Shown here: positions 3,001 to 60,319 of the stretch, piece by piece | How positions within the stretch are numbered: position 1 is the first letter of the stretch | Layout: each line of letters begins with the position of its first letter | Origin: Thuidium tamariscinum | Lineage: Eukaryota > Streptophyta > Bryopsida > Hypnales > Thuidiaceae | NCBI GenBank assembly: GCA_947034885.2 | Contig: OX344756.2 | Span: 15,248,098 to 15,312,097 of the forward strand | Length of the DNA: 64,000 nucleotides | Reading direction: 5' to 3' | Position numbers and translations under genes: made by a program | Notes under the pieces: model-generated | Told to the model about the DNA's origin: nothing | Database searches by the model: none | The model's input: only the letters and a program-made list of their open reading frames with translations

Positions 3001-5050
3001 ATAGCAGGGGAGGGGGGGAGCAAATGATACACTTGAGATTTTGATGTCATTAGATGGAATTTGAAACAAAGAGAGGGCCATTTCAAGCATGTGATATATA
3101 TCATAAAAGATTGGTTTGTTGTCATAATATTAAATAAATAAACAAAATTATTTCATTTTTGAATGATTTTTTTTTTCAAAAACATTTTTATTGTCTAGTA
3201 TGGCCAAATTTTAGCCATGTTAGACTATTGATGTCGCATGGTTCCCACATTCCTTGCAATTCAAGAACTCATGGACTTGTTGAACACTAAATCTCATCTA
3301 CTGTAGTTTATGAAGTAAAGACTTCATGACTATGTAGTTCATCAAAAATACCCAAGCACTTCCCAAGCAAAAAAAATTTTAGTGCATGGAAGGATTTCAT
3401 CAAACTACTACACATCATTAGAAGGGATTTGAAGGCAAGAGAAGCCCATTTCAGGATTGTTCCCTTGCATGTTCTTTATGTTGTTTAGAAATTGTGAATC
3501 AACCCTATTGGTTGAAATTTTCAAAATTTTGGAAGAATTTCTTTTTTCAAAAATTTGAAAGAATGTTCATAAACCTAGAACTGATTTAAGATTTTTTTTT
3601 CCAAAAATATATTTAAAAAATCTATATCTATATCTATTTTTTGACATTGCAATGTCTTAATCACATCAAACTGCTGATGTAGTACGTTCCCACAAATCGA
3701 TTTGAAGTGGTTTTCTAAAGTTTTAAGATAGATAAATGCATTAAATTTCATACAAGAATTTTTATTTATTTTGATTCGTACCTAGGAGCAAAAATTATAC
3801 CACAATAAGCTCAAAATGATGGAGACTGGGTTTAAAAAAAGTCACTAAACCTGAAATTGTAATTATTAATATTTTAATATATTATTTTTTTGTTTACAAA
3901 TTAAATAGAAAGCGTTGATTCATTTCATTTGGACTATTGATATAAAAGTAATGGTACTTCTTATTTTGCAAGCAATCATCATATCTTTTTAAGATTGTAA
4001 TGTATTGGTTTGATTTTGAACACGATTTTCACAATTTAAAAAATGTTCCACGAGGTTAAGTAAGCTTTGCTAGAACAATCTCATTGTTGTGCTTGGTGTG
4101 TACAATTCAATTCCATTTTTAAGCAATTAATAACTTATTTTTTCCTCCAATTTTATACCTATTTTTACTACACAATTTTTGAACTTTTTTTCTTTGACTT
4201 TCAACTCAAGTCTTCAATATAATTAAAAAAATTTGTAGTGCAAAAGTTTAAAGTCAAGAAGACTTAAAGTCAAATAGTCTATCCATAGAACATATTCAAT
4301 AAAAATAATTTCTTCACTTAGCAGTTTCTACTTTTTTTAACTCTTGGGAATATAAAATATTTTTTTTCAATGTTTTTTTAATGAAAAAGAGTCCTTGAGA
4401 CATCAAAGACGACTAAATGTTGTATATTCCCACTGTATTTCTAAAGATATTGAAATGAAGCATATTTTTTGTTCTACAATTTTATTTTATTTTATTTTGA
4501 ATTTCAACTGTTGAGTATATGTTTGCTATGTTAAACAATCTTGTAGGCACAAATGAAATGATCTAGGACATTTCTTGAACTTGGCAAACGTCACCTTATA
4601 GATATGAGGCACCTTGTATTTGTTGCTTTTCCAAACAATAGTGTTGATGTTGGGCTTAGTGTCTACTTGGGTGTTGTAAAGATGTGTTCAGAAAGTAAGC
4701 TAGATTTCCTTTACACTCAAGAATAAGGCCAAACTATTCATATTCTTGGAACAACATGGCGCAAGCCAAATCTTGGGAACATTGCAACTTGAAAAATTGA
4801 GGTGGATTTTTCAAGTAGCCTTGGTGGGATATCAATGAAGGTTGCAACTAGTGCGATGCTTTTTCCTCCTCAACATGCAAAAACCATTTGTATGAATAAT
4901 ATTGCGTGCCTACTGCCTAGATGGAGATGCTTTAATGGAAAGAATTTTTAGAATTTTTAGTGGGACAAAAGGAGTATTTTTATATATTAAAATCTCATAA
5001 ATGTTCCTTAGAAAATTGTTACACATCATTACCTAGAATTCCAGATCGAT
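1..5050. other. AT-rich gene-poor region, decayed repeats
   Basis: No open frame here has coding character: the longest are under 90 codons and low in complexity. Poly-A/T runs are frequent. From 4540 to 4950 the plus strand shows short coding-like stretches broken by stops, probably a dead transposon fragment of unknown family. The phrase around 3785-3820 (accacaataagctcaaaat) recurs near 45200, so the same AT-rich repeat family occurs in both places. Confidence 0.6.
2341..2420. repeat. 20-bp short tandem repeat, about 3.5 units
   Basis: Units begin with tttcaaacat at 2351, 2371 and 2391. A degenerate unit (tttttgacat) follows at 2411. The second half of each unit varies around the pattern tagatgttg. 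This is a small minisatellite with no visible function. Confidence 0.7.
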
Positions 5051-7060: not shown

Positions 7061-10000
7061 ATGAATTTGAATATGCAGAAGGAGGAGGCTCTTTCTATCT
7101 CGAAGACCATGCCGTCAGCATTGCAGTCCACCCCGAGCCCCACGTCTGTGAAGTCGGACGCCACTAGCAAACGTTCTCCTGGGGTTGTAGCACGGCTCAT
7201 GGGCCTTGAATCTCTCCCCGAAAGAACGTGTAATTCGTCTTCAAAATCTGGATCGCTGCATTCTGAAACACCGGCATTGCTTGGACCTCCTCCCCTGTTA
7301 CTCCCAGAGCTTCTTCGCCTCGAGCTGCAGCACTCCAAAAAGTCTTTCAAGGACAAACTTCCAAGCTTTACGAAGAAGGCACCGGATTCGAAAGGGGCTA
7401 TGCCCCAGAAGAAGAAACCAGTATCCCATGTTCGAGAACAAGGGCACCCGTATGTCAATTCTAGAGCTCCGAAAGCTTCATCAGGACAGGAAGATGTGAA
7501 AGGCTTTGGGAAGCAACCCTTCCTTGCGCGGCTGAAGCATACAGGTGGTCCTTCCATACCCCCTTCTTCAAAATCGCAGAACTCCCATTCCCCGACTCTC
7601 CCTTCAATGTTTCAGAAGTCACATTCCCCGATGCTGTCACCGGCGATGCTCGGGGCAAGGAATACCGTTCGGCTGCTGGAGGCCGCAGTGAAAGCTCTGG
7701 AGCCCCCACCTGCCCCAAGGAGAAAATTTACTCTTACAAACGGTGACTCAAATCGAAGCGAGAGCGGCCGATCGGAGAAGACGGCCTTTGGAACTTCCAA
7801 CTATGGCCGAGGGGGAAGTCCGTCTAATTCCGCCACCAAGCCGGGAAGAAACCAATCTAGGAGTGGGAAGGATGACAGAGCTGAATCGAACTCTCCTGGA
7901 AGCCGGAGTACTTCCAGAGCCCCAAATAGACAAGCTTCAAGAGCAAGGCACGACACAACCCTTGTAGCTGCACCGTCTACCTTGCAGTCTCAGAGATCGA
8001 GAACTCCAACTTCTAAAAGGATGAAGGAATCTTCCCGACCGTTACTACGCACTCACGAGGCTTCAATTCGAGGTTTCAAAACTGACCTCGGAGACTCTCC
8101 TTTAGGAAAGAAATTGAAAAAGAACGACTCCCGCCCGCAAGCTGTAGAGTCTCAGAAACCTCTCGGTACCCCATCTCCGAATAAGAAGACTGACTCTGCT
8201 GAGCCGTGTACTCCTGACCGAAACCCTAAAACTGATGGCAGTGAAAGTTCACCAACCGTTGTACCAGAGAAGCCTCGTGGTTTTCGGTCCATTCGGTTCC
8301 GAAATAGAGGCGGGAAGCACGAGACGTCAATTGCACCGTCGCCTCCAAATGAACCAGGAGAAGTCAATTGCAAAGACCAAGGAAAGCATGGATCTCCCAC
8401 TGAGGAGAAGCGAATTGCAGTGACACCTCCGAAGGAAGCGAAAGTGTCTGGATTCAGCTACAACATGCTCTTCAGAAAACAGGGGACTAAGAAGGAAGGG
8501 AATGAAACTGGTGATGCCCTCGTTATGAGACGGGCAGATAGCACTTGGATGCGGCATCTCATAAGGAAGCCGAGTAGCATCCCGGGGACGTCGAAATTGA
8601 GCGAAAAGGTGAATGTGGAAGTGACGGAGGTTGTGGAACAACAAGAAGTTGTTTCACAGGCGCCTGCATTATCACCGGTTCACCATGAAGAGGGACCCAA
8701 TGTTGTGCAAGCAAGGTACAGATCCATTGATGATGTTTTCCCGGAGCTTCCAATGGAAGAGAAGGATGCATGCGGGCCCTCACCTGAGCTTGCGAGGACC
8801 ATCCATGCAGTAGAGGAGCTGCATTCACTGCGACACGATGATGCAGACTACCGATCTATTGAGCGAATGTTTGGGAAAGAATTTTGCAGGTCACGTATGG
8901 CCGCGGAACTAACGAGCCCTGAGATGTCGCCAGCCCCTGGGACAAGTCCTGAGTATGGAGTTCCGGGGACGTTTCCGAATAGTCCGAAGTTTGAGAAGAC
9001 CGATTCGTTCTCGTCAAGTAGTCAACTCAATCTGCACGATATGTTTGAAGTTGTTTCGGGGAGTCGCTCGCATGACATGGGTCGAAGACGTAGCTTCTGT
9101 TTGTCGGAGCCTCAAGAGCGTGTTTTGAATGAGTCGGATGCCGAGGAAGTCGAATCCGATGCATGTAGTAACTGCGTTGGCGAGCATCTTGAGGTATACT
9201 CCACGATATTTCGATTTTGAAATCTCCCTGATAAATTCTCTCGCAATTCAAGGTAAACCATAGGAAATCAGAGTCGAATGTGATGAGTGGTGGAATTTAG
9301 GTGTTGGAGCATCAGGAATGTTCCTTAGATCTCTCCACGTAGTTGTGATGCTTCTTCAAGGATTCGACTGAAATTGCCCGGCCTATGTTTTATGTGCAGA
9401 ATTTCAAATTTTCAGTAGCTGCGGGGTGGATGACTCCACCAGCTTTGAGGGAATTTGAACAGAAGCTAGCACAGGAGTGTGTGATGTCGACGCCACCTTC
9501 TTCTTCGAACTCTGAAGAGGACCTGGAACATGAAGATCGGATTTCGACACCACCTGCTTTGAAGAAGTTTGAAGAGGAACTGGAACATGAAAGTGCGATG
9601 CTGACGCCACCTGCTTTGAAGAAGTTTGAAGAGGATCTGGAACATGAGAGTGTGATGCTGACGCCACCTGCACTAAAGAGTTTCGAAGAGAAACTGGAAC
9701 ATGAGGGTGCGATGTCGACGCCACCTGCTTTAAAAGAATTCGAAGAGAAACTAGAACTTGAAGGTGCGATGTCGACGCCACCTGCATTGAAGAAGTTTGA
9801 AGAGAAACTGGCACTTGAGGGTGTGATGACTCCGCCTGCCCTGAAGAAGTTTGAAGAGAAACTGCCGCAAGGCTTCTCAGATATAGACGACAGTCATGTT
9901 TTGTGTCCTGACGAATTCGGGCAACCGAGTCCTGTCTCCGTTCTTCAATCGCCTTTTCTTGACGAGATTCCTACTACTCCAGATGCAAGCCTAGCTGGTT

Positions 10001-10845
10001 AGTTCTACTTCCACGCAGTGACTGAGTTTCCAAATCCACTTGTATTTTCATGTAAACCAAAATCAGAGTATGCATACTGATCACTTCGATTTTATTTTGC
10101 TGAACTTGCAGAGGCTCAGCGTGTCGGAGACACAGAGGCTTCTGGAACCAAAGACGACGACGAAGATGAGACGGAGGAAGCGAACGAAAATACGGCGACC
10201 TCGAAGCTTTCAAACGCGGTCATGCCGGAGATGATTCAGACGGACATGATCGAGCAAGTGATTCTGGACATTTCCAGGATTCGAAGTATTGATGTGACGA
10301 AATGTGGTATTGAGCCACAGATTATTGCACCAGTAGAGCCACAGCAGGAATTAAACTACATCAGACAGGTCTTGGATCTGCCCAGAAAAGGAGACTTTCG
10401 ATGTCACTCTGCCGTGAACCAGTCCTTGTTCAAGAGACTTGAGTTCGGAAGCAGGACACATGGACCAAGCATACGATCGGAGCGGAGGCTTCTCTTTGAT
10501 TCTGTGAACGAGGTGATGGCGCTTGAGCCATGGCTGAAAACATCGTCCTTCTATGTCGAGCTGCCGATGTTCCCCGACCTGCACGCGAACTCCAAGTTCC
10601 GCTCGCCATTATCCGGAGAGGAGCTTGTGCACGAAGTGTACCGAATGTTCTGCCACTGGAAAGATATCGCAGGCAATTGCCTTGATGATTTGATCGACTA
10701 CGATATGAATGTCCCCGAAGGCCGGTGGGTAAACTTCGGCCATGAAGTGGCGGATGTCGGCCTCGACATTGAACGCACGCTGTTACACGTTTTAGTTGCT
10801 GAGGTTGTCGATGACTTGACCTCCCTTATCGCAAGACGACGTTGA
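7061..10845 (+). CDS. TRM/LONGIFOLIA-like protein (three coding exons, 1154 aa)
   Basis: By family this is a cortical-microtubule organiser of the TRM (TON1-recruiting motif) group, which includes LONGIFOLIA and acts with TON1/FASS/PP2A. Exons by hand splicing are 7061-9193, 9400-9997 and 10112-10845; junctions GAG|gtatac, gtgcag|AAT, CTG|gttagt and ttgcag|AGG keep phase. The signature SPGVVARLMGLESLP lies at residues about 39-53. A long basic, Ser/Pro-rich disordered region follows. The C-terminal exon carries a DUF4378-type domain (LFDSVNEV, EELVHEVYRMFCHWK, LDIERTLLHVLVAEVVDDL; truncated here to key words). Exon 2 is mostly an eight-unit TPPALKKFEE repeat. The ATG at 7061 is the first after the last upstream stop; if the acceptor at 7078 is used, the true start is in an upstream exon. 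Family assignment is confident, the exact N-terminus is not. Confidence 0.88.
9430..9875 (+). repeat. Coding tandem repeat, eight units of about 54-60 bp
   Basis: Inside exon 2 of the TRM-like gene, each unit encodes roughly TPPALKKFEEKLEHEGAMS (19-20 residues). The units are imperfect: the second has TPPSSSNSEEDL, the last two are shorter. The array keeps the reading frame throughout and ends at LPQGFSDIDD. The units are acidic and likely helical between TPP caps. Confidence 0.9.
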
Positions 10846-23700: not shown

Positions 23701-25750
23701 AATTGACCAATATGGACCAACCAATTGTGGGTGGTTTGGATGGACAATACCATCATAAATAAGCTCTTGAGGATCCCATTTAGTATGGGCCAAACTATCC
23801 TATCATTTGATTTTTGCCTCAAAGAAAGAATAATCAAAAACCTAAAATACTAGTCTATAGTCAAAGACAGGATACAACATGATTGTGAACAATACCTTGA
23901 TCAACTCCACGTTCTACTTTGTCCCCATATAGGGGGGGTACTATGTCTAGTATAAAATAAGTAACTTCAATGATTCAACAATTCTTATGGTTGGGTATTG
24001 TGGGTGATTCTAACTCCACCTTTGAACTATAATTTATCATATAGGTTCTAATGAAAATTTTAAGTAGTAAATTTTAAGGTGATCAAATTAAATGTCTTCC
24101 AAGCAATAGACACTCAAATGATGTGATTTGTTCCTACAAAAGTTAAAAAATAACTAAAATTATAAAAGTTAGTCTACTTTATGGGTTAATGGTTAGCTAA
24201 TCAAATGTCAAAGTTTATGAATTCTAATCAAAGTTTTATCTAATCGTATCTCTAAATCTTGTTTTAAGGTTTTTAAAATGGTGAAATATGTGAAATTTAA
24301 AAATTCCCTTCAAAAGTTATGAGAGGATGAAAAACAACCCCTAAAAAGCCTTGAGAACTTCATCCATTGTTTAAAAATAACAAATTAGATTGATTTTGTC
24401 CCAAATTTTATCCCTGGACTCCTAATGAATTCTAGGTTTAGGTTTAATTTTATTGTTAATTTTGGGCTATTTTTGTAAAAGTTCATCCAAATGAGTTTCA
24501 AACTTCATCCATCGATATTGCACTCAAAAATGAATGATTTTTCAAATGAAAAATGGTTTTAGAATCCTATTTAGATTTTCTAAAAGACTCCTTAACAAAA
24601 TATCCCTTAGGTCTTTTCTCAAATTCTTAGTTAAAAGGTTGTTTTATCTAATCTAATGGCAAGTTCAATCTAAATTACTAATTTTAGGTATTTCAAAAAT
24701 TTAAGTGAAAATTAAGAAATCTTCTTCCCAACAAAGTAAAAAGGGGTGAATGCAAGAAAAACTTGTACTATTTGGTGTCACACTTTGAGTGACGGAGTTG
24801 TCATGAGTTATAACTTTTGAAGCATTAACTATTTGAACTTGAAATTTTTATTTGAGATGGATGACTTGATTTTAGGCAAAACCATTATTTTTCAGAAATT
24901 TTCAAAAATCATTTTATATTTTAATTTTAATTTAGCTAATTTGTCTCACTTTGCGGTTAAGGGTTTTTTAGTACTGGGGAGTACTTAAAATTAATGATTT
25001 AGAGATGAGATTTCTAGGGCCTATTTCTACACTAGGTAGGCATGTTTCTACCAAAGGAAATTTAAAAAACCATTATTCTCTTTCCTCTACATGTGTGCTA
25101 ACAAGCCTCTCTTGCATGCACATTTTTGAACAATCAAGATAGTTTTAAGATCATTATTTTGGTGAAATATCTTTGCTATAAAGTCTTCCCAAATGAAAAT
25201 TTTTTAGTTTTAAGAAAAATTACTTTTCCTTTTTTTACAAATTAGAATGTGAAACTATAGTCAAAGTTAGAATTTTCATGAAATTCTGCACTTTTCTAAT
25301 TCTCCTACTTAGAGAATTTTCCTATGCTTTTCCTTCCTAGGGTACCTTCTTCTTAAAGTTAAATGGTATTGAAGATGAGCATAAGTATAATTGACCATTA
25401 AACTGGAATAATTTTCAGGACTTGAAGTTGAGTCCTCAATATGAAGAAATGGATGGGACGGTCTCACATTGGTATTGTTGTGTATGATTTTTATATTAAA
25501 ATTATCCTCGAGTCGAAGATATTTTCTTAATAAACTAAGCACTTTATGATGTTGGGAACTTGAAAGGATAAGTGCATCAATTTATTTTGGAAAATTGACG
25601 TGATGCTTGGTTTACACGTCTATTGTGAATGGTCATCCATTTGTAATAGTTATCGCTAATTCGATGATAACTTCTGATTTAGTAACTGTTGTTATGATTA
25701 ATTACTCTAACAAGTCTTACCTTAAAAAATTAGTAAGAACTTTCATTAGT
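23700..25750. other. AT-rich sequence with no supported feature
   Basis: Only short, low-complexity open frames occur. Nothing recognisable as a gene or as the ends of a mobile element was seen. Confidence 0.5.
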
Positions 25751-25752
25751 AC

Positions 25753-26070
25753 ATATATGGGGAATTTCGTTAAAATGGCGGTATTCCACATGCCATTTTC
25801 ACACCTTGACATCTAGGACAAGTATACATTGCTAATATCTAGGACACTTTTAGATTTCTGAAATCTATGACAAGCATAGATATTAGACCAAACAATCTAA
25901 AAATCTAGGATTGGTATAGATTTCAGAAATCTAGGAGAGTTGTAGATTTTCAAAATCTAGTACAGGTGTAGATCCTAGGATAGAAAAAACGGTTCAGACC
26001 GCGCAGTCTAAATTGCTCAAAAGCGCCAATTTAACGAAATGGTGCCATTTTAACGAAATTTCCCATATAT
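25753..26070. mobile_element. MITE-like inverted-repeat element, about 318 bp
   Basis: The left end (25753-25779, atatatggggaatttcgtta...) and the right end (26044-26070, ...taacgaaatttcccatatat) are inverted copies, about 27 bp with one mismatch. Flanking AT repeats hide the target duplication. Between them, 25805-25985 is a degenerate direct repeat built on (a)atctaggacaagtatagat-like units of about 30-35 bp. There is no coding capacity. The class of DNA transposon cannot be told without a clear duplication. Confidence 0.7.
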
Positions 26071-26198
26071 ATTGTGTATGAATCAGGGTTATCATCAGAT
26101 CGAGGATGATGAGAAAGTGAAGAAAGTTTATTAACTTTCAAATGTTAACATAAGTCACATTTTAAAGAGTAATTATAAAATTGATTACAATATCCCCC

Positions 26199-26712: not shown

Positions 26713-29700
26713 TGTGAGTCCTGTCATTGTCACTCAGGCCTCGGATTTTTCTTTTTTCGCTTATCGCTCATATTTAGGGTTATCATGGTTAAAAATCAAC
26801 TAAAAAGAGAGTTCAAAGTAGGATTGATACAATTCCCTATAATTACGAGGAATTGATTACAATTATTTCGGAGTACCTTAAAAGACTCCTTAGAGCCAAT
26901 TTCTATGTCTTATTAGATGATGAAATATGATATTAAGCAGTTACCAAGAGGTTGCACTAATTAATATTTGGGAGACAAATTAGTGCAAAAGTACCAAGAC
27001 GAGCTTTATCATAATTCTTGAAGGGTCTTGGTAGGATTGGGCTAATTGTCAACCATGGGATTCCGATAGTCACCTAAGAATGTAGCGGCGAAGCTAACTT
27101 GTGGAGATTCCCTTGTAGAGAATGATTTTTCCCCGGAGGAATTAATTTCGCTATAGTATAATCTCGATTTTATTTAGATAGTGTGGGTTTTTAGTGAAAC
27201 TTTGCACTTGTCTTTAGGGGGCTTCCTAGAAGATCCCCTAAAAGTTTCGTAATTTTCTAAATTCAAGAAATGACTCCATGGGAAGACAACTGCTTTTACC
27301 AACAATGGGAAATTTATAGGAAATTTATAGGAAATTCCATGATGATGATAAAATCCCACTAAAAATTAGGATAGTATGTTTTAGCATAAATAAGCGCTTT
27401 GCCAAATTTCAAGACATTTTGACATCAACAAGTACCAAAATTGGTAGTGGCAACAAGTTCTAATGGTTTTACCAAATTTCTTGCGAGTTGACCAGCGTAC
27501 GGGGAGCATACGGAGTCCAATTTGGGTCAACTTAGACTCTTTCTTAACATTCTTGGACCTTCTCAACAATCCTAGCTAGTCAAAAAACTTTTGGGAAAAA
27601 TCAATTCCAAAAGATAGATTTTCTACCTTTTTTATTGAATCGTAATTGTTAGCTTTTGAGCGCAATTAGGCTCCGGGAGAAAGGGGTACCCTTACGCTAA
27701 TTTGGATCTTCTGAAACTATTGGCACTGTCCGTTTGGAAATCAGACCATTTCTCCAAAAGTTAGAGTAGTTATAGCAGTAGAATAGATTTTTTAACATTA
27801 ATTTGGTTTTTTCTTAGGTAGATTAGAATGTAACTTGAAGGGGGAGGAGGCCTTGAAAATGTATAAAAGGCCTCCCCCTCCCCTCATTCCACACCTCTTA
27901 CCTCATATACACACAAATCTCTTACATCCTATATACCTTATACGCCATAACCACATTCTATACATTCTTTTTCAAACATCCTCTATCATTCTATATTGCA
28001 TTTGATTTCCTACATGTCCACATTACAAGGTTCTTGGTACTACCCAAAACTCTTGCCTCTCTTTTATGCATTTGAATTTCATTACAATCTTGATATTTTC
28101 TTGTTGTAAGACATCCAAAGGACTTGGAGGTACCTTTGGGGAGCTTAACTAATACACTTGTGTTCTTGCTTGAAGCCTTGACACCAAAATTATGTGATTT
28201 AAGTCTTTTGACAAGGGATTCACAGCCTGGATTGGCTTATCGAGGATCCCCCTAAGCTTAAACATTTAATTGAGGTCCTTGTTTGCATTGCAGGAATTTG
28301 GGTAGGATCCAAACTTCTTTTAGTCTTTGAGTAGACAAAACTTTGGCAAAATTATCCTAAAATTTGAGGTTAATCCCTCTTATACGGTGAAGCTATCGCC
28401 AAAATTTTAAGATTTTTGACAAAATTCCATCACGTAGTTTCCAAAGTTTGGGCTTAATTCTCCAAACGGCGAAGTTTTGACTTACTAACAATTTTTGAAT
28501 TGAATTTGGTTTAAAGGGTCCCTCAAGGAGACCCCAGTTGGTTTAAGAACCATTGTGGCAACAACCACCTTAATATTCTCAATCCAATATGAACCAACAA
28601 CCAACCCAAAGGAATAGACAATCCATTGATACCCGCCACCACCGGCCGGCCTATACCCGACCAGGTCGATGTCCGACCGAGCCAGCTAATGGCTAAGCAG
28701 GCTGTCAGATGGCAGAGGTTACTTAATCACAGTGGGCAGCTGATTGATTAGCGAGCCCATTCTCACATCATACATCAGTTTCTAAAAAACCAAAACCCTG
28801 GGAGGATACCTTCAGGTCTCATTTTGGATTTTTTTCCAAATTTTCAAAGCAATAAGCTTTGGAAGGAAAACTAAAAGTTCAAGGAGAGAATTTAGGGAGG
28901 GATTTGTCAGAGGGACATTAAATTTCAATTGTTTGGAATTCCTTTCTCTTCATAGAATCAAGGTAGGAAGAACTTCCAAAATAGATAGTTTGAGGCAAGA
29001 TCCAGAGAGAAATGAGCTTGGGAAAGGGTCTCAAGAAATCTGATTTTTGCTAAAGTCAACTCAGTTTGACCAAGCCAAAATTTGGAGGGACAACCCATCC
29101 CACAAGGGAGCATCTCAGCCACTGAGTAAGCTTACAGACTAAATACAACTTCAATTCAGAACATGTGGGGGGTGCATCAGTTTGGAAAAATTTGAATTCC
29201 TTCAAAGTCAACTCAATTTGATTGGCCCAAAGCTTGGAGGAGACAAATCAGCCCCATGGGGAGCACCTCACTCATTGAACACACTCACAGGCTGTGATCC
29301 AGTTTCAAAACTCACAAGAACAATCAATCCAGCACAAGTGCATTCAAAGAAAACATCTCTCAAACTCTCAAGCTAAAAGTATATTAGTATGTGTGGAAGT
29401 TGGAATGATATGCAAGTGTTAGTGTTAGGGAAGGAAGGTTAGGCCCAAGTAGAGAATCATTGACTTTTGCGTCACGGTTAGGCTTGATAGAAAAGACAAA
29501 TAGAAAAAAACAAATAAAAAAATAGTTTGACTTTGAGAAGTTTAGAGGTTTGCCAAATTAGAGAAAAATTGGAAAACCTCAGTTGTAGTAGAATTGACTT
29601 TTAAGAGCATTTAGTGATTAATTTTGAAAATTAGATTATATTAGGATAATTTATAGGTTGACCTTGGAGGCCATTTAAAAGAAAAGAAAGGAGCTCAAAA

Positions 29701-42693: not shown

Positions 42694-43089
42694 TGGAAAA
42701 GCAAAACCCAACCACAAGGGTAGCTTGGGGAAGTAGTCTAGGAAATAGTAGAAGTATAAAACAGCCTAGGAAAGAGGCCTATTTGTAAATCCACCCGGAA
42801 AGGGGATAATTAAAAGGACAGAATTGGGTCCCAATCGAAGCCGAAGGATGGCTATGGTGGACATGGCGTGGGGAGCGGGGGAGCTAGGAGAGGCCGCTAC
42901 ATACATACTAGAGGTGGGTTCCTAAACTTTAACCCAATCCCTTCTCTCTTTAGTATAATTGATTAGAATGAGCAAGCGGTTAGAATTAAAGGCCACGAAC
43001 CAGTTGAGATTAGGGGACCGTGATTAGCAAGTAGGGACTGAACCCAAGGAACGAACCACAAGTTAAAAGGAACGAGCAAAAGAGATAAA

Positions 43090-43330
43090 ATACGTAGAGT
43101 AGAATTAGATTAAGACAAATATGTAGAGTAGAGGTATCCAATTAGGATACATAGAGTTGAATTAAATCAAGACAACTACGTAGAATAGAGGTATCCAATT
43201 AAAATACGTAGAGTAGAATTAGATCAAGACAACTACGTAGAGTAGAGTTATCCAATTAAAATACGTAGAGTAGAATTAGATCAAGACAACTACATAGAGT
43301 AGAGGTATCCAATTAAAATACGTAGAAGTA
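43090..43330. repeat. 57-bp tandem repeat in B2, about four units
   Basis: Units start with (a)atacgtagagtagaatta at 43090, 43147, 43203, 43260 and partly 43317. Each unit also contains a second tacgtagagtagaggt half, so there is an inner dimer structure. The motif tagagtag continues loosely to 43500. Confidence 0.8.
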
Positions 43331-43683
43331 GGTTAAGATAAATACCAATGCGTAGAATAGGATAAAAATACAAAGACGTAGAGTAGGCCCAAACAAAGAC
43401 AAATACATAGAATAGATTAAAAGCAAAGACGGACACATAGAATAGCCTAAAACCAGACACAAGGCATAAAAGTAGGACAAGAGAACGAAACAAGTAGAGT
43501 AGGGAACCACGCCTAAGTAGGACCAACACACACATTAAGATAAGTAAGTTAGTAAGGAAGATCCATTGCTTAAAAGGCACAATGGATTGACGCTTAGACA
43601 CCCATAGGTAGTAGAATCATTAGGACCAGAGCCTGGTTGTGATCGCTTAATTCCAAGGGTGGGAATGAAGCGCCCACAACAAG

Positions 43684-53095: not shown

Positions 53096-54950
53096 TGTGA
53101 GCCCCGTCATTGTCACTCAGGTCTCGGATTTTTCTTTTTTTCGCTTATTGCTCGTATTTAGGGTAATTATGGTTAAAAACAACTAAAAAGAGTGCTCCCA
53201 GTAGGATTGATACAATTCCCGCCAAGGATGGAGAATTGGGTCTAAATATTCTAGAGTACCTTAAAAGACTTCTTAGAGCCAATTTCTACAACTTAGCGGA
53301 AGATTAGATATGATATTACGCAATTCACAGGAAATGGCACTAGCACCACGGGAGTCCAACAGTCTCCTACCGGCGTCACGGCGAAGCCAACTAGTGGAGA
53401 TTCCCTTGTACGGGAATGATTCCTCCCCGAAGGAATTAAGTCCAGCACAGTGCAATTCCTGCTTTGATTAGACAGTGTGGGTTTTTAGCGAAACTTTGCA
53501 CTTGTCATGAGGGGGCTTCCTAGAAGATCCCCTAAAAGTTTCATAATTTTCTGGATTACGGAAATGACTCCATGGGAAGTCAACCGCTTTTACCGGCAAT
53601 TGGAAATTCATGGAAAATTCCACGATGATGGTAAAATCCCACTAAAAATTAGGATAGTATGTTTTAGCCTAAATAAGAGTCCCGCCAAATTTCAAGACAT
53701 TCTGATAGCGGCAAGTACCAGAACCAGCGGCGGCAACAACTTTCTAGGGTTTTACCAAAACTCTTGCGAGTTGACCAGTGCACGGGGAGCATACGGAGTC
53801 CGATTCAGGTCAACTTAGACTCTTTTCCAACATTCTTGGACCTTCCCGACAACCTAGGCTAGTCAAAACCTTTAGGAAAAATCAATTCCAAAAGATAGAT
53901 TTTCCACCCTTTTTACCGATTCGTAAATGTTAGCTTTGGAGCGCATTTGGGTTCCGAGAGTAAGGGGTAGGGGTTCCTTTAGACTAATTTGGGTCCTCTG
54001 GAGCTAATGGCGCTGTCCGTTTGGCGATCGGACCATTTCTCCAAAAGTTAGGATTGCTACAGCAGTAGGGTAGATTTTTAAATCGTTAATTTGGTTTTTT
54101 CGTGGTTAGTTTTATTCGTAACTTGAGGGGGGAGGAGGCCTTGGAAATGTATAAAAGGCCTCCCCCTCCCCTCATTTCACACCCCTTTTTCTTTCAATTC
54201 TCATTTCGTTGAATCGCCACGAAGCCCTTATTCTAAATTTTGGCCATAGAGCCAAACCTTTGCTCAATTTTGGAGAGACATTGTTCTCCTTATCTTCCCT
54301 CTCTTGCCTCTTGTTTTTTTGGAGTGTTTTCCAAGGACGTTGGGGTCCCTTGGAACCTCTTGCTTATGTGTTTGGAAGTTATTGATACCATCATCGGGTG
54401 AGTTAAGTCTTTGGACAAGGGATTCACAGCCTGGATAGGCTTATCGAGGATCCCCCTTGGCTTAAACATCGGTTTTAGGTACTCTTTAGGAATTTGGGAA
54501 GGTCCCAAACTTCCTTAGTCTTTGTGTAAACCAACCTCTGGCAAAATTTGCCTAGAAATTGGGCCATTTACTCCGAGACGGCGAAGCTTTGAACCCACTT
54601 ACAATTTTCTAGTATTTATTATAGTGAAAAAGATAGCAAAGAAAGTAGTTAGAAATCCAATTTGAGTTTTAAGTTGGAAGGGTCCCCTGAGGAACCCAAA
54701 TTTGATGTGGCTTCCACTGCCTGATCATATGTTTAGAAGTTAAAAAAATTAGTTTACACCACTAGCCAGGCCCCAGCCGGAGCTTCGAAGCCCAGCTAGA
54801 GCCACTCTGGCCCTTGAGCCAGTACCGTCCGGCCTACCGGCCTCAGAGCCCACCGGCCCTTGAGCCCACCGGCTGCCAAAGCCAGCCGGCACAGCTGCTA
54901 GCCTTGCGGCCAGCACTGACAGCTTAACGGCAGGTTAACCACCATTAGTA
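53096..54950 (+). mobile_element. Element B3: 5' part of a B-family LTR-like element
   Basis: Starts TGTGAGCCCCGTCATTGTC and follows B1 (26713-28560) nearly base for base through the TATA box (54150-54157), then a GC-rich CCGGCC/CCAGCC block at 54755-54930. The GCGCCCACA end seen in B1 and B2 is not found, and no target duplication of the left flank (gaagc) was located, so it appears truncated on the right near 54950-55000. Confidence 0.7.
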
Positions 54951-55600
54951 CAGGTCGATTAGGCCAGTTCGGCCATGCATGGTCTCATCTGAACATACCT
55001 CATAAAGGCCATATTCGTTAAATTGAGAAAATGTGGGGTCTCATTTTAATCATGATCCTAAATTTAGAAAGAAGAAGTAGTCATTAATTTGAGACAATTT
55101 ATTAAATTGAGACAAAAACATGCCAAATTCATCAAAAAATAATGAAAGGAAGAAATGAATTGGATTAGAAGATACATTCAATATCGAGTAGAAGTAGGAA
55201 ATTTAGAATTCAATATTGTAAAATATACAATAATATTCAATCTTAAATACAAAATATTAAAATAATGAAAATATAACAAAGAATCTAGAAAATGCTCAAT
55301 GTACCATAGACAATAACAATACAAATGTATTAAAATGAACAACATCCATGACATTTGATTTCAAAAATGTGATCAATACAATAATCCAAAAATAAATTTG
55401 CACACAAATTCTAAGTATTTTTTCCTACTTATTTATTTTTAATAGTTTTTTTCTATTATTTCCAAAGACAATATAGAAAATAGCATTTGAACTTATAAAA
55501 CTATTAGCAAACTTTTTTTTTGGTTACTTTTTTTAATATATTTAAAACCAACTACAATCTGCTGATAATAGCTATTCGACTTCTATATCTCTAAACTAAA
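54950..55600. other. AT-rich spacer, no feature seen
   Basis: Low-complexity sequence between B3 and the transposase-like gene. It probably contains the 3' end of the latter's element, but no inverted repeat was identified. Confidence 0.4.
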
Positions 55601-55605
55601 AATCT

Positions 55606-58452
55606 TCACGCCGATGATCCATTGTTGCCTTCATTGAGCATGTAAGCATGCACTGATGCCTTGATGATATCAATTTGGGTTTTGGGAATTTTGATCCTTG
55701 GATCTGAAGTCCCTGCTCTCACACGTGGCTTCCAACCAGTCATGATGCAATCTGTGTGTGCCCAACTTGAAGATATAGCTTTATCTTCGCACCAAGAATT
55801 CCCTTGTTTTGTATCCCAGCCATTGTAGGTGCCCTCATCAATGTGTTGAAAAGATGTAGGTGTCCGATATTGGAGTTGAATGAAATTGACATGCGCAGGA
55901 TCTGGATTAGGGTTTGTCAATGCCCGTGCAAGCCAAAATGGACGAAGATCACCATCAGCAAGACGTACAGCAACAAAATATCCTGCATAAACATCACGAC
56001 CAACACGAAATGAAGGAAGTGGACGATCACGTCTACGACCAACAAAGGGTGCATCTTCTGCAAATTCTTCACGCACTGTACCGTCATCATGGTATTGATC
56101 CACTTCCTCAGTGGAGATGATTGAATTTGGCCAAAATCCATCTCGCAAGGTCTCACGTCTCACAAGTGGTTCAAGCAATGCATTTGCCACACCTTCCCAA
56201 TACTTCTTCACTGGCTCAATCTTTCTCCGAAATTCTCCTGACAAGTTTTGATTGGCCATTGCACCCCACAAATCAATGTAGCCATCTAAACCCTTTGAAA
56301 CCTCATCAAAGCAACGCATAACGTGCGGAGCCAAAGGCTGAGGACTACCTCTAGGAACTTTAGGGTGACCATCTGCTGTCTCCTTCCACAAACGAATCCC
56401 TCCACCTTCCCTTGGCAACCAATCACTATCAGTACAAAGAATTTTATATTGCATCAACGGCCATCCGTTAGAGTCCTTATAAAATTTGAATTGTTGAGCT
56501 TGAGAATGCCCCTGTAGTGAATCATCACCTGTATGCAAGTACCCTTCTACAAACCCTTTGAAATCAGGAACCTCTTCAATGAAATGTGGAATCACAGGTT
56601 GTGTTTCGCAATCCATGAAGGACTTCATCAACCTTGGAATTGTAGGGTAGTCATTAGTCTTTAATTTGGTACTCCATCGACCAAAAAGAGCATCAATATC
56701 TTCATGAGTATGTCCAACAATAAGGAAATTGATGTATATTTCGCGAAATATAGCTCTATGAACAAGAAGAGAACAAAATGCGAAAACCCAACGGTTTTTG
56801 TTGTCCCCTAAGGCATTGTCAAGTTGGAGAGTCAATACTGGAGGAAGACATTGAGGTTGAATAACCTCTTGAGGAGGAGGAGCAAGGGAATCTTCACACA
56901 TCTCTGAGCCTTCTAGAATAGTTAGAGATAAAGGATGAATAGGATCATCCTTCACAAACAACTTCCGCGATGAGACTTTAGGCTCAGACTCTAAATCACG
57001 TAACAACTTTGCAATGGATCCAACTGTATGATTAGAATCTGTGGGGAAGATATCCAACCCATAGTGCGCATATCGAACATCTCCATGTCCATGAGCAATC
57101 ATGCCCGTAACTGCAATTGGCATCTTCATAAAAGAATCAGTCCCTTTGTTCTTGTGAGAGTAATGTGGAGAAGCCGTTTTGGAATGATCCATTTTGTCGT
57201 GGATTATAGTCAACATCTTCTCTGGACTTCTCTTAGACATCATGCGGTTTGCATAATACAACTCTCAATGCGCTTGCTGCCCTGCAAGGTGCACTTTCAA
57301 TTTTTTAGTCCACACTTCTTGAGCATGAGACCGTGGAGTACAAGCGTTCCTTAGTTGCTTCAATCTGTCACATTGCCCACAACGAGCAAAACTGTCACCA
57401 TGAGCCTTCGGAGCATATTCTGGAAATGAAATGCGACGGATGTTGCTCAATCCACTTGTTGAAACATGCTGCAATTGGAATGATGAATTCACGCTATTAA
57501 TCTCGGGCAATGTTTCACTCCAGCAGAAAGCTGAAGGAAGAACCATTGAAGGAACTTTCTCTCCTGATTGGAGAGTCCTTGATTTGTGTGGCATTTGGTC
57601 AGCGCTCCTATCAAGAACGAGTCGAAGGATAGCAGTGGCCTGTAGTGTATGCGTCCTAGGCTTCTTCAAACCAAGATTGCCATGATGCCCTGGTTGTTTA
57701 TCACTTCTTACTTGCTGTCTATACCTATAGAAGGTAGATTTGTGAACTCCATGAATGATGCACCAAGCAGTAGGACAAACTTCTCGAGATGCCAAAGTGA
57801 TCATCTCTCTTCCATTTGAGTCATGATGAACTTGCTTGTGTACACCAAGCAAACATGATTGACGATTGTACACACCACCATTAACGTAAAGCTGAGAACG
57901 TATGGCTTGAATCTCCCCCCGAGGAAATGGTTGCAAACAATTCTGTCGACAGCACAACATCGTCGAAACCTCGGTAATGGCTCGCGTTATAAGAAGGGAT
58001 TCTTTTTTGGGAAGATTTTCTGGCTCCTTCTTCTCACGCGAACTTTCATAGGAACGAACACCTGTTCGAGCACGACGTGTAGATGCACTTACAGCAGTCT
58101 TGAATATATGAGTTTGATCGTGATCGAATAGGCTTGCACCTCTGAGGAAGACCCTTGAAATGTGCCAAGACCGCATTGACCACATCCAAGAGAATGGAAC
58201 GTCATGCTCACTCAATGACTGTGCAATCTGAACTACAACATGATCGTCTCCGAGAGGATTTCCATCCATGTCGATGACAAGGTTGGCATCGACGCTGTGG
58301 CAAATCGCTCTTGCAACCTCCACCCCAGCTTCGTTTGTAAGGGTTACCCCTTTTGTAACCCAAGAAGATCGAGGGATACCCTCGCAGGCAGCTACACCAT
58401 CTGGTAAGGCTAGCAACGGAACTGCAAACTCATTCGCACTTGAAGTCTCCAT
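55606..58452 (-). pseudogene. DUF7869-type transposase-like gene, one in-frame TGA away from a 950-codon frame
   Basis: Two minus-strand frames, 58452-57265 and 57264-55606, are the same frame separated by one TGA (57265-57267). The N-terminal part has a Cys-rich spot (FARCGQCDRLKQLR) near its end, preceded by YRQQVR and CPTAWC segments. The C-terminal part has IIHDKMDHSKT, LTLQLDNALGDNKNRWVF and VGHTHEDIDALFGRW, which I recall as the core of DUF7869 proteins. Asp22/25, Asp148 and Glu187/Asp188/Asp190 (counting from codon 57261) are spaced like an RNase H-fold DDE/D site; this is inference. The ATG at 58450-58452 is the first in frame. No introns are needed. TGA in place of a CGA codon would be a CpG deamination. 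It could alternatively be a stop-codon readthrough or two separate proteins. Confidence 0.75.
57265..57267 (-). other. Internal TGA stop separating the two halves of the DUF7869-type frame
   Basis: Minus-strand text cat-tga-gag-ttg-tat-tat. The same frame is open for 395 codons before it and 553 after it. No ATG follows for five codons (ATG only at the sixth/seventh), so the downstream frame is unlikely to be a separate gene. Confidence 0.85.
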
Positions 58453-58492
58453 TTTGCGCAAGATGAAACCTTATTACTTATACAGAAAAGGA

Positions 58493-59258
58493 TATCTTCG
58501 ATTCGAAGATAAAGTATTCTAAACATCACTCACAAGCAGGGCCAATGACATATCATGATCAAAATTAATGAATAGAAAGAATTATCCCTATTCATGAGAA
58601 AATAGATAAAACAAAGTACCTGACATTACAACAATCCGTATAGGACCTACACATCAGCTTCTATTGTGTTTTTCCGTTCATTAAGAGCCTATTTTTCACC
58701 TTCACATTTATCTGCGATTCGAAGATAATATAAAATGTGGATCTCTACTGGACCCAATAATTCTAATCACGACTGCGTAAGTTCTTTATAATGGTTAGTT
58801 ATAACTCCGAACGAATCTACCCTACGGACACTTCATCACTTCAACAATTGGAATGGTTGATATATCTTCGAGTCGAAGATAATACTCCAAAATAAATCTC
58901 AAGAGAAAAATTATGCTTCATATTACTTAAGGCAACATTTATTCGTTCGGTAATATCTGTAATTTGAGAACAAATACTCTCGAAGGCGTTAGAATTTTGA
59001 AATCTATTAGAAACATCTGTGAATGACCCTGCCCATTATATTCTTATTCCATATGGAACATTAAGTTGTATAATTATCTTCGAATCGAAGATAATTCTTA
59101 TTTTGAGACCTAAGGTCTCCATATAAAATTGCCATGTATTTAATCAGCTCGAAATCTTGGATGTTAGTTATTATCTGTAAGTTCGAGAAAACACCCTTAT
59201 TGACCATGATTATGCTTGAATACAGAATACTGAAAATATTATCTTCGACTCGAAGATA
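58493..59258. repeat. Five 19-bp palindromes, TATCTTCGANTCGAAGATA
   Basis: Copies at 58493-58511 (centre T), 58709-58727 (centre T, one arm change to TCTGCGA), 58863-58881 (G), 59075-59093 (A) and 59240-59258 (C). Spacing is 216, 154, 212 and 165 bp. The arms are constant while the centre base and surroundings vary. They lie in the 5' flank of the DUF7869-type gene. They look like protein-binding sites, either for a transposase (subterminal repeats) or for a regulator of the gene. Confidence 0.88.
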
Positions 59259-59264
59259 ATGTAC

Positions 59265-60030
59265 AGGGTGACCCCAAATTCTTTATTCTTCGCGGAAATC
59301 AGCGTACAGAAGGCTCCGCTCCGAATTTTACGGCGCAAAATTCGCGCTCCACTAATTGCAATGTGTACAGCATACCGTAGAAGAAGACTATTACACTGAC
59401 TAAAACATCAAAATTGAAGGGAAGTACATAATTGCACAAACTAAAACATTGATAAAGAAGACGTACTCATCGAAACTGTGACCAAATACAACTGTGGATG
59501 CATCTCTACTACGACATAGCCAAAGCTTGTGCATTGGAATTCAGACAGGACATGAAATATGAATCACAAACTACAACAAAGTTAACATCAGGTACTTCAA
59601 CTTACAAGAACCCGAGCACAATAGACCTGTAGACACGCTAATGCAGCTGTCAACTAGAAGAAAGCGATGCAATGTTGCAAGGCAGCGGCGGAATGAAGAT
59701 AGAGGAAGGCGGCGAGCGGAGGAAGAAATGAAAGAGTGGTGCTCACTGGGAGAGAGACGATGCAAATGAAGTGGCGGGATGAAACGAGCGGCAAAGGTGG
59801 TGAGATTTCAAACTTTCAAGTTTTCCCGGACTCAGGGGAGAAGCACCTGTGGGGTTCAAGGGGAGTTGACATTCTTACCCTCCTTTATAAGGTGCTGACG
59901 GAACCTACTCAACAACTTTATATTAATTGAACTGGAATCTTAGAATTTGTCGATCACTTTAGCATATAAATAGGGGAATTTCACTTGAAGGCTTTTCTGA
60001 CAGCCGTCATTTCTTCCGGGCCACGGAATT
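59265..60030. other. Upstream region with a GC-richer patch, no gene supported
   Basis: acagggtgacccca at 59263-59276 looks like a transposon terminus, but no inverted partner was found. 59300-59340 has inverted GC-rich words (ggctccgctccg, aaaattcgcgctcc). Open frames of 64 codons on both strands at 59571-59930 carry no motif. Confidence 0.4.
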
Positions 60031-60039
60031 TACTGTTAA

Positions 60040-60310
60040 GGTGGGTACACCCAAAAGCGCCCTATTCCTAAAAGCGCCATCTACAGTGCACATACATTTC
60101 CGAAATCAGTCATGTATCCAGACTGTAGATGGCGCTTTTAGAAACAGACTTTGACTGTTAATAACTTTTGCATACGGTATCCAAATCCTGCGTTCTTTGG
60201 TGCGTTGGAACATGCTTTCACTTGCCAACAAGACTACATAAAAATTTGAACTAATTAATAGCAGGAAGTAGGCTCAGTATGAATAAGTGGCGCTTTTGGG
60301 TGTACCTACC
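60040..60310. mobile_element. 271-bp MITE with TTAA target duplication
   Basis: TTAA at 60036-60039 and 60311-60314. The ends are inverted: GGTGGGTACACCCAAAAGCG on the left, and ...CGCTTTTGGTGTACCTACC on the right, differing by one base and one indel. An inner perfect 20-bp inverted pair (60068-60087 with 60122-60141, containing AAAAGCGCCATCTACAG) forms a hairpin with a 34-base loop. AAAAGCGCC is shared by inner and outer repeats. A TTAA duplication points to piggyBac- or Kolobok-type transposition. Confidence 0.82.
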
Positions 60311-60319
60311 TTAAATGCT

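What the first reader, a model, noticed from the sequence alone, without database searches (positions are those of the whole stretch)
58493..59258. Five constant 19-bp palindromes upstream of the DUF7869-type gene
TATCTTCGA-N-TCGAAGATA occurs five times in 770 bp with only one arm change and a free centre base, while the DNA between is unrelated. Such conservation in AT-rich decaying sequence is striking. The simplest view is dimer-binding sites: subterminal transposase sites, an origin-like array, or an autoregulatory operator of the adjacent gene. This pair, gene plus palindromes, is the best candidate for an undescribed system here.
Basis: seen in the sequence. Interest (0 to 1): 0.85.

Follow-up and report, generated by a model that had tools for sequence, protein, structure and literature searches.

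The report
Palindrome array at a moss transposase gene
Five near-identical DNA palindromes sit in front of a moss gene that looks like a transposase, and a distant cousin of that gene carries its own, different palindromes of the same design, which suggests that each protein recognises its own landing marks on the DNA.

The parts
58493..58511 (.). palindrome 1, TATCTTCGATTCGAAGATA, 40 bp upstream of the ATG
58709..58727 (.). palindrome 2, one arm change (TATCTGCGATTCGAAGATA)
58863..58881 (.). palindrome 3, TATCTTCGAGTCGAAGATA
59075..59093 (.). palindrome 4, TATCTTCGAATCGAAGATA (symmetry extends to 25 bp)
59240..59258 (.). palindrome 5, TATCTTCGACTCGAAGATA (symmetry extends to 23 bp)
55606..58452 (-). 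single-exon DUF7869 gene, 948 codons plus stop, one in-frame TGA; 84.8% identical to P0001 over 948 aa
57265..57267 (-). in-frame TGA at codon 396
56143..57264 (-). codons 397-770: modelled RNase H-like core with DUF7869 (PF25273)
25503..25521 (.). sixth copy, one mismatch (TATCCTCGAGTCGAAGATA), no DUF7869 remnant found in the window outside the gene
25651..25669 (.). possible decayed copy (5 mismatches), 148 bp from the sixth copy
26090..26108 (.). possible decayed copy (5 mismatches)

Best explanation
This is one flank of a moss DNA transposon whose gene encodes a DUF7869 protein, a DDD transposase with an RNase H-like core and a more variable N-terminal half that holds conserved Cys and His residues. 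The palindromes are the element's own recognition sites: a symmetric dimer of the transposase (probably through its N-terminal half) binds each 19-bp site, one subunit per TATCTTCGA arm, skipping the centre base. Several bound dimers gather the element's ends for cutting, and sites this close to the ATG could also let the protein hold down its own transcription. Shown: the sites, their clustering, the transposase-like model and acids, the same site design with different letters upstream of the L001 gene. Inferred: binding, dimer, role in transposition, self-control, and that sites and N-terminal half change together.
Confidence: 0.66

Rival explanations
1. Operator only: the DUF7869 protein (or a repressor) binds the palindromes solely to control its own gene, with no role in moving DNA.
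For: All five sites lie upstream of the gene, the nearest 40 bp from the ATG; none with fewer than 5 mismatches downstream; in L001 too the well-formed palindromes are all upstream.
Against: L001 has further copies of its motif downstream, up to about 630 bp behind the stop codon, with 3-5 mismatches.
Confidence: 0.15
2. An unrelated repeat family that happens to lie beside the gene.
For: A gene-less copy with two weak neighbours at 25503-26108.
Against: The DNA between the sites is not repeated, so they did not arrive as recent copies of one longer unit; a distant DUF7869 locus has the same design with other letters.
Confidence: 0.08
3. Host regulatory sites (a dimeric plant transcription factor) or a replication-origin-like array captured by the element.
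For: Perfect dyad symmetry fits any dimeric DNA-binding protein.
Against: Arms differ between the two DUF7869 loci while the design is kept, which one conserved host factor would not explain.
Confidence: 0.07
4. RNA hairpins in the 5' leader of the transcript.
For: Inverted repeats near the start codon.
Against: A one-base centre is a poor loop (established knowledge); sites reach about 800 bp upstream; the letters themselves are kept among the five sites, not just the pairing. No RNA folding was run.
Confidence: 0.03

Closest known systems
Subterminal repeats of CACTA (En/Spm, Tgm) transposons, bound by TnpA-type proteins
   Same: Many short element-specific motifs near the ends; in soybean Tgmt the repeats can form palindromes (2 in the left border, 12 in the right), and the motifs diverge between subfamilies, in step, its authors argue, with the DNA-binding protein (PMC2613891, passages seen).
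   Different: Here the sites are odd palindromes 154-216 bp apart; no CACTA-type end was found; no TNP2/Transposase_21 match in Pfam; one protein seems to carry both core and DNA-binding parts (inference).
Dada transposons
   Same: DDE transposase, no terminal inverted repeats, short subterminal inverted repeats (PMC3706591, passages seen).
   Different: Dada acids are spaced 67 and 175 residues with a DxxH motif behind the second D; here, by my assignment of the acids, 122 and 39/41, with no C/DxxH between the second and third acid (window translation).
Tc1/mariner transposases (Mos1, SETMAR)
   Same: Among the closest fold matches of the core; third acid on the last helix, 39-41 residues after the second.
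   Different: No sequence match to a solved transposase; 948 aa with large N- and C-terminal additions; no terminal repeats found.
Hermes (hAT) ends bound through several BED domains
   Same: Several dimers of the transposase contact one transposon end (PMC10368747, abstract in a search listing only).
   Different: hAT sites are not long palindromes (recalled); Pfam reported no BED domain.

Membership tests
DDE/D transposases (RNase H-like) | RNase H-like fold of the core | tested here: met
DDE/D transposases (RNase H-like) | three conserved acids at strand 1, strand 4 and the last helix | tested here: met
   D422 94/94, D545 93/93, D585 and D587 91/93 each; places in the model.
DDE/D transposases (RNase H-like) | element bounded by inverted repeats and a target duplication | tested here: inconclusive
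   None convincing in one copy; no second copy with full flanks available.
DDE/D transposases (RNase H-like) | multi-copy, dispersed | tested here: inconclusive
   366 related proteins, of 120 listed one 90% cluster holds 647 sequences, but copies per genome were not counted; the genome search unanswered.
CACTA (EnSpm) | TNP2/Transposase_21 transposase domain | tested here: not met
   Pfam reports only DUF7869 for the window gene and for 7 of 7 relatives scanned at E up to 5. A distant relative, P0146, has a weak N-terminal Transposase_23 match below the curated cut-off, two of nine others weaker ones.
CACTA (EnSpm) | CACTA terminal repeats and 3-bp target duplication | tested here: inconclusive
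   No terminal pair found; true ends unknown.
Dada | acid spacing 67/175 with DxxH after the second D | tested here: not met
   By my assignment of the acids spacing is 122 and 39/41; Dada values from passages.
TnpA-type subterminal site system (works like) | element protein binds repeated sites on both flanks | tested here: inconclusive
   Motif on both flanks in L001, degenerate downstream; one flank in the window; binding not testable here.

The most novel reading that the evidence does not exclude
DUF7869 proteins form an undescribed superfamily of eukaryotic DDD transposons in which each family is marked by its own set of odd palindromes with a fixed TCGA-N-TCGA heart, the outer arms changing together with the N-terminal half of the transposase: a natural lock-and-key series for DNA recognition.
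Probability: 0.4. Interest if true: 0.78.

Novelty: new variant of a known kind. Interest (0 to 1): 0.6.

Why it matters
It gives a domain of unknown function (DUF7869) a testable job, transposase, and supplies its probable DNA target letter by letter. If each DUF7869 family carries its own palindrome, hundreds of natural protein-site pairs become available to learn how recognition changes, and the palindromes become a search tag for gene-less derivatives in moss genomes. In the held library of open-licence papers, searches for DUF7869, for DUF8039, DUF6589 and the motif strings GHTHEDID and HTHEDID, and for PF25273 and PF26133 found no paper; repeat databases such as Repbase were not searched.

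Full report
What is there. TATCTTCGA-N-TCGAAGATA occurs at 58493, 58709 (one arm change), 58863, 59075 and 59240, as reported; the centre base is T, T, G, A, C. Shuffles of the window give 0.02 matches at up to 3 mismatches, against 6 seen: these five and one at 25503. A scan that knows no motif finds 7 odd palindromes (8 of 9 arm pairs or better) in 55606-59700 against 0.62 expected, five of them one family; none of 300 simulated sequences holds a family of three. In the whole window one other family of three exists, inside a repeat near 25850-25960. The stretches between the sites are 135-197 bp, 30-36% GC and unrelated in all 12 comparisons. Start-to-start spacings are 216, 154, 212 and 165 bp. 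All ten CpG steps of the five sites are intact; CpG stands at 0.62 of expectation in the window and in the gene, and at 0.77 between the sites, so this is at best a weak sign of selection.

The gene. Reading minus from ATG 58452 gives 948 codons in one exon with one TGA at codon 396; P0001 matches over all 948 residues at 84.8%. Pfam reports DUF7869 (PF25273, E 3e-47). Relatives number 366 at E 0.001 or better (120 listed), among them named proteins of Ceratodon purpureus and Physcomitrium patens, and further out Riccia sorocarpa and the brittle star Amphiura. The window is therefore probably moss nuclear DNA; no other test of the organism was made.

The second locus. The one scan of genome contigs gave 44 pattern matches, of which one encodes a relative: L001, a 4327-base contig filed under an uncultured cyanobacterium, CADCWO010000071.1, 46% identical to P0001 in its best segment. 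It encodes an intact 944-aa protein whose best relative in hand is P0031 (75%) and which is 59% identical to a named Ceratodon protein, P0117; I take it for moss DNA that strayed into that assembly, which is inference. Upstream of its gene lie TTTAGCTCGAGTCAAGCTAAA (34), TTTAGCTCGACTCGAGCTAAA (114; symmetric over 27 bp with its flanks, as printed) and TTTAGGTCGAGTCGAGCTAAA (489). In the motif-free scan these are the only three odd palindromes of the contig, 0.49 expected, and no simulation of 300 holds a family of three. Downstream lie four copies of the motif with 3-5 mismatches at 3573, 3750, 3821 and 4071; they keep the motif's letters in part but are no longer good palindromes. With up to 5 mismatches 7 sites are seen, all outside the coding region, where 0.025 are expected in the contig. 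The window motif and the L001 motif share odd symmetry, the free centre and TCGA-N-TCGA, but not the outer arms; L001's motif does not occur in the window at up to 4 mismatches. The two proteins are 26-34% identical in the four 50-residue blocks of 1-200, 38-48% over 201-400, 38-70% over 401-700 and 30-66% beyond. One pair of loci cannot prove that sites and N-terminus change together.

Against the reading. A sixth site at 25503 (one mismatch), with two weak ones at 25651 and 26090, lies where no gene remnant is found; weak matches of that grade are 7 in the window against 2.4 expected. It may be a gene-less or decayed derivative; a short inverted-repeat element at about 25753-26070 lies between the two weak ones. 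The window copy has no downstream site with fewer than 5 mismatches; between the gene and 54730 the best has 5, at 55156. No convincing terminal repeats with duplications were found.

Mechanism. A 19-bp site with two equal arms and a free centre base is what a symmetric dimer would contact over about two turns of DNA (established knowledge). Several such sites flanking the gene, with letters that change between families, work like the subterminal motifs of CACTA elements, where TNPA recognises the repeats, is needed for excision and can block transcription, and where the motifs vary among elements (PMC2613891, passages). I do not file the element under CACTA: the TNP2 domain test was not met. 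Nor under Dada: acid spacing not met. My confidence that the gene is a transposase is about 0.85, that the palindromes are its sites about 0.7, and in the whole reading with a role in transposition 0.66.

Noticed in passing
window 60036-60314: Short element with 26-bp inverted ends (96% complementary) beginning and ending in TTAA; looks like a non-autonomous element of a TTAA-targeting family.
   Followed up: no
window 25753-26070: Short element with 27-bp inverted ends (96%) and internal inverted AAATCTA-type repeats, lying inside the possible decayed palindrome array.
   Followed up: partly
window 26792-28296 and 53175-54500: Two copies (77-87% identical in pieces) of a long repeat, possibly a long terminal repeat; the second ends about 1.1 kb behind the DUF7869 gene.
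   Followed up: no
window 9400-9885: 57-bp tandem repeat inside an open frame (9385-10002), coding a 19-residue repeat of the type TPPALKKFEEKLEHEGAMS.
   Followed up: no
window 43086-43370: Another 57-bp repeat array, A-rich, with no open frame of 150 aa listed over it.
   Followed up: no
window 59264-59275: CAGGGTGACCCC directly behind palindrome 5 resembles a transposon end; no partner found.
   Followed up: partly
L001 3554-3621 and 4052-4119: A 68-bp segment carrying a copy of the motif is duplicated (74%) behind the gene, so sites may multiply by local duplication.
   Followed up: no
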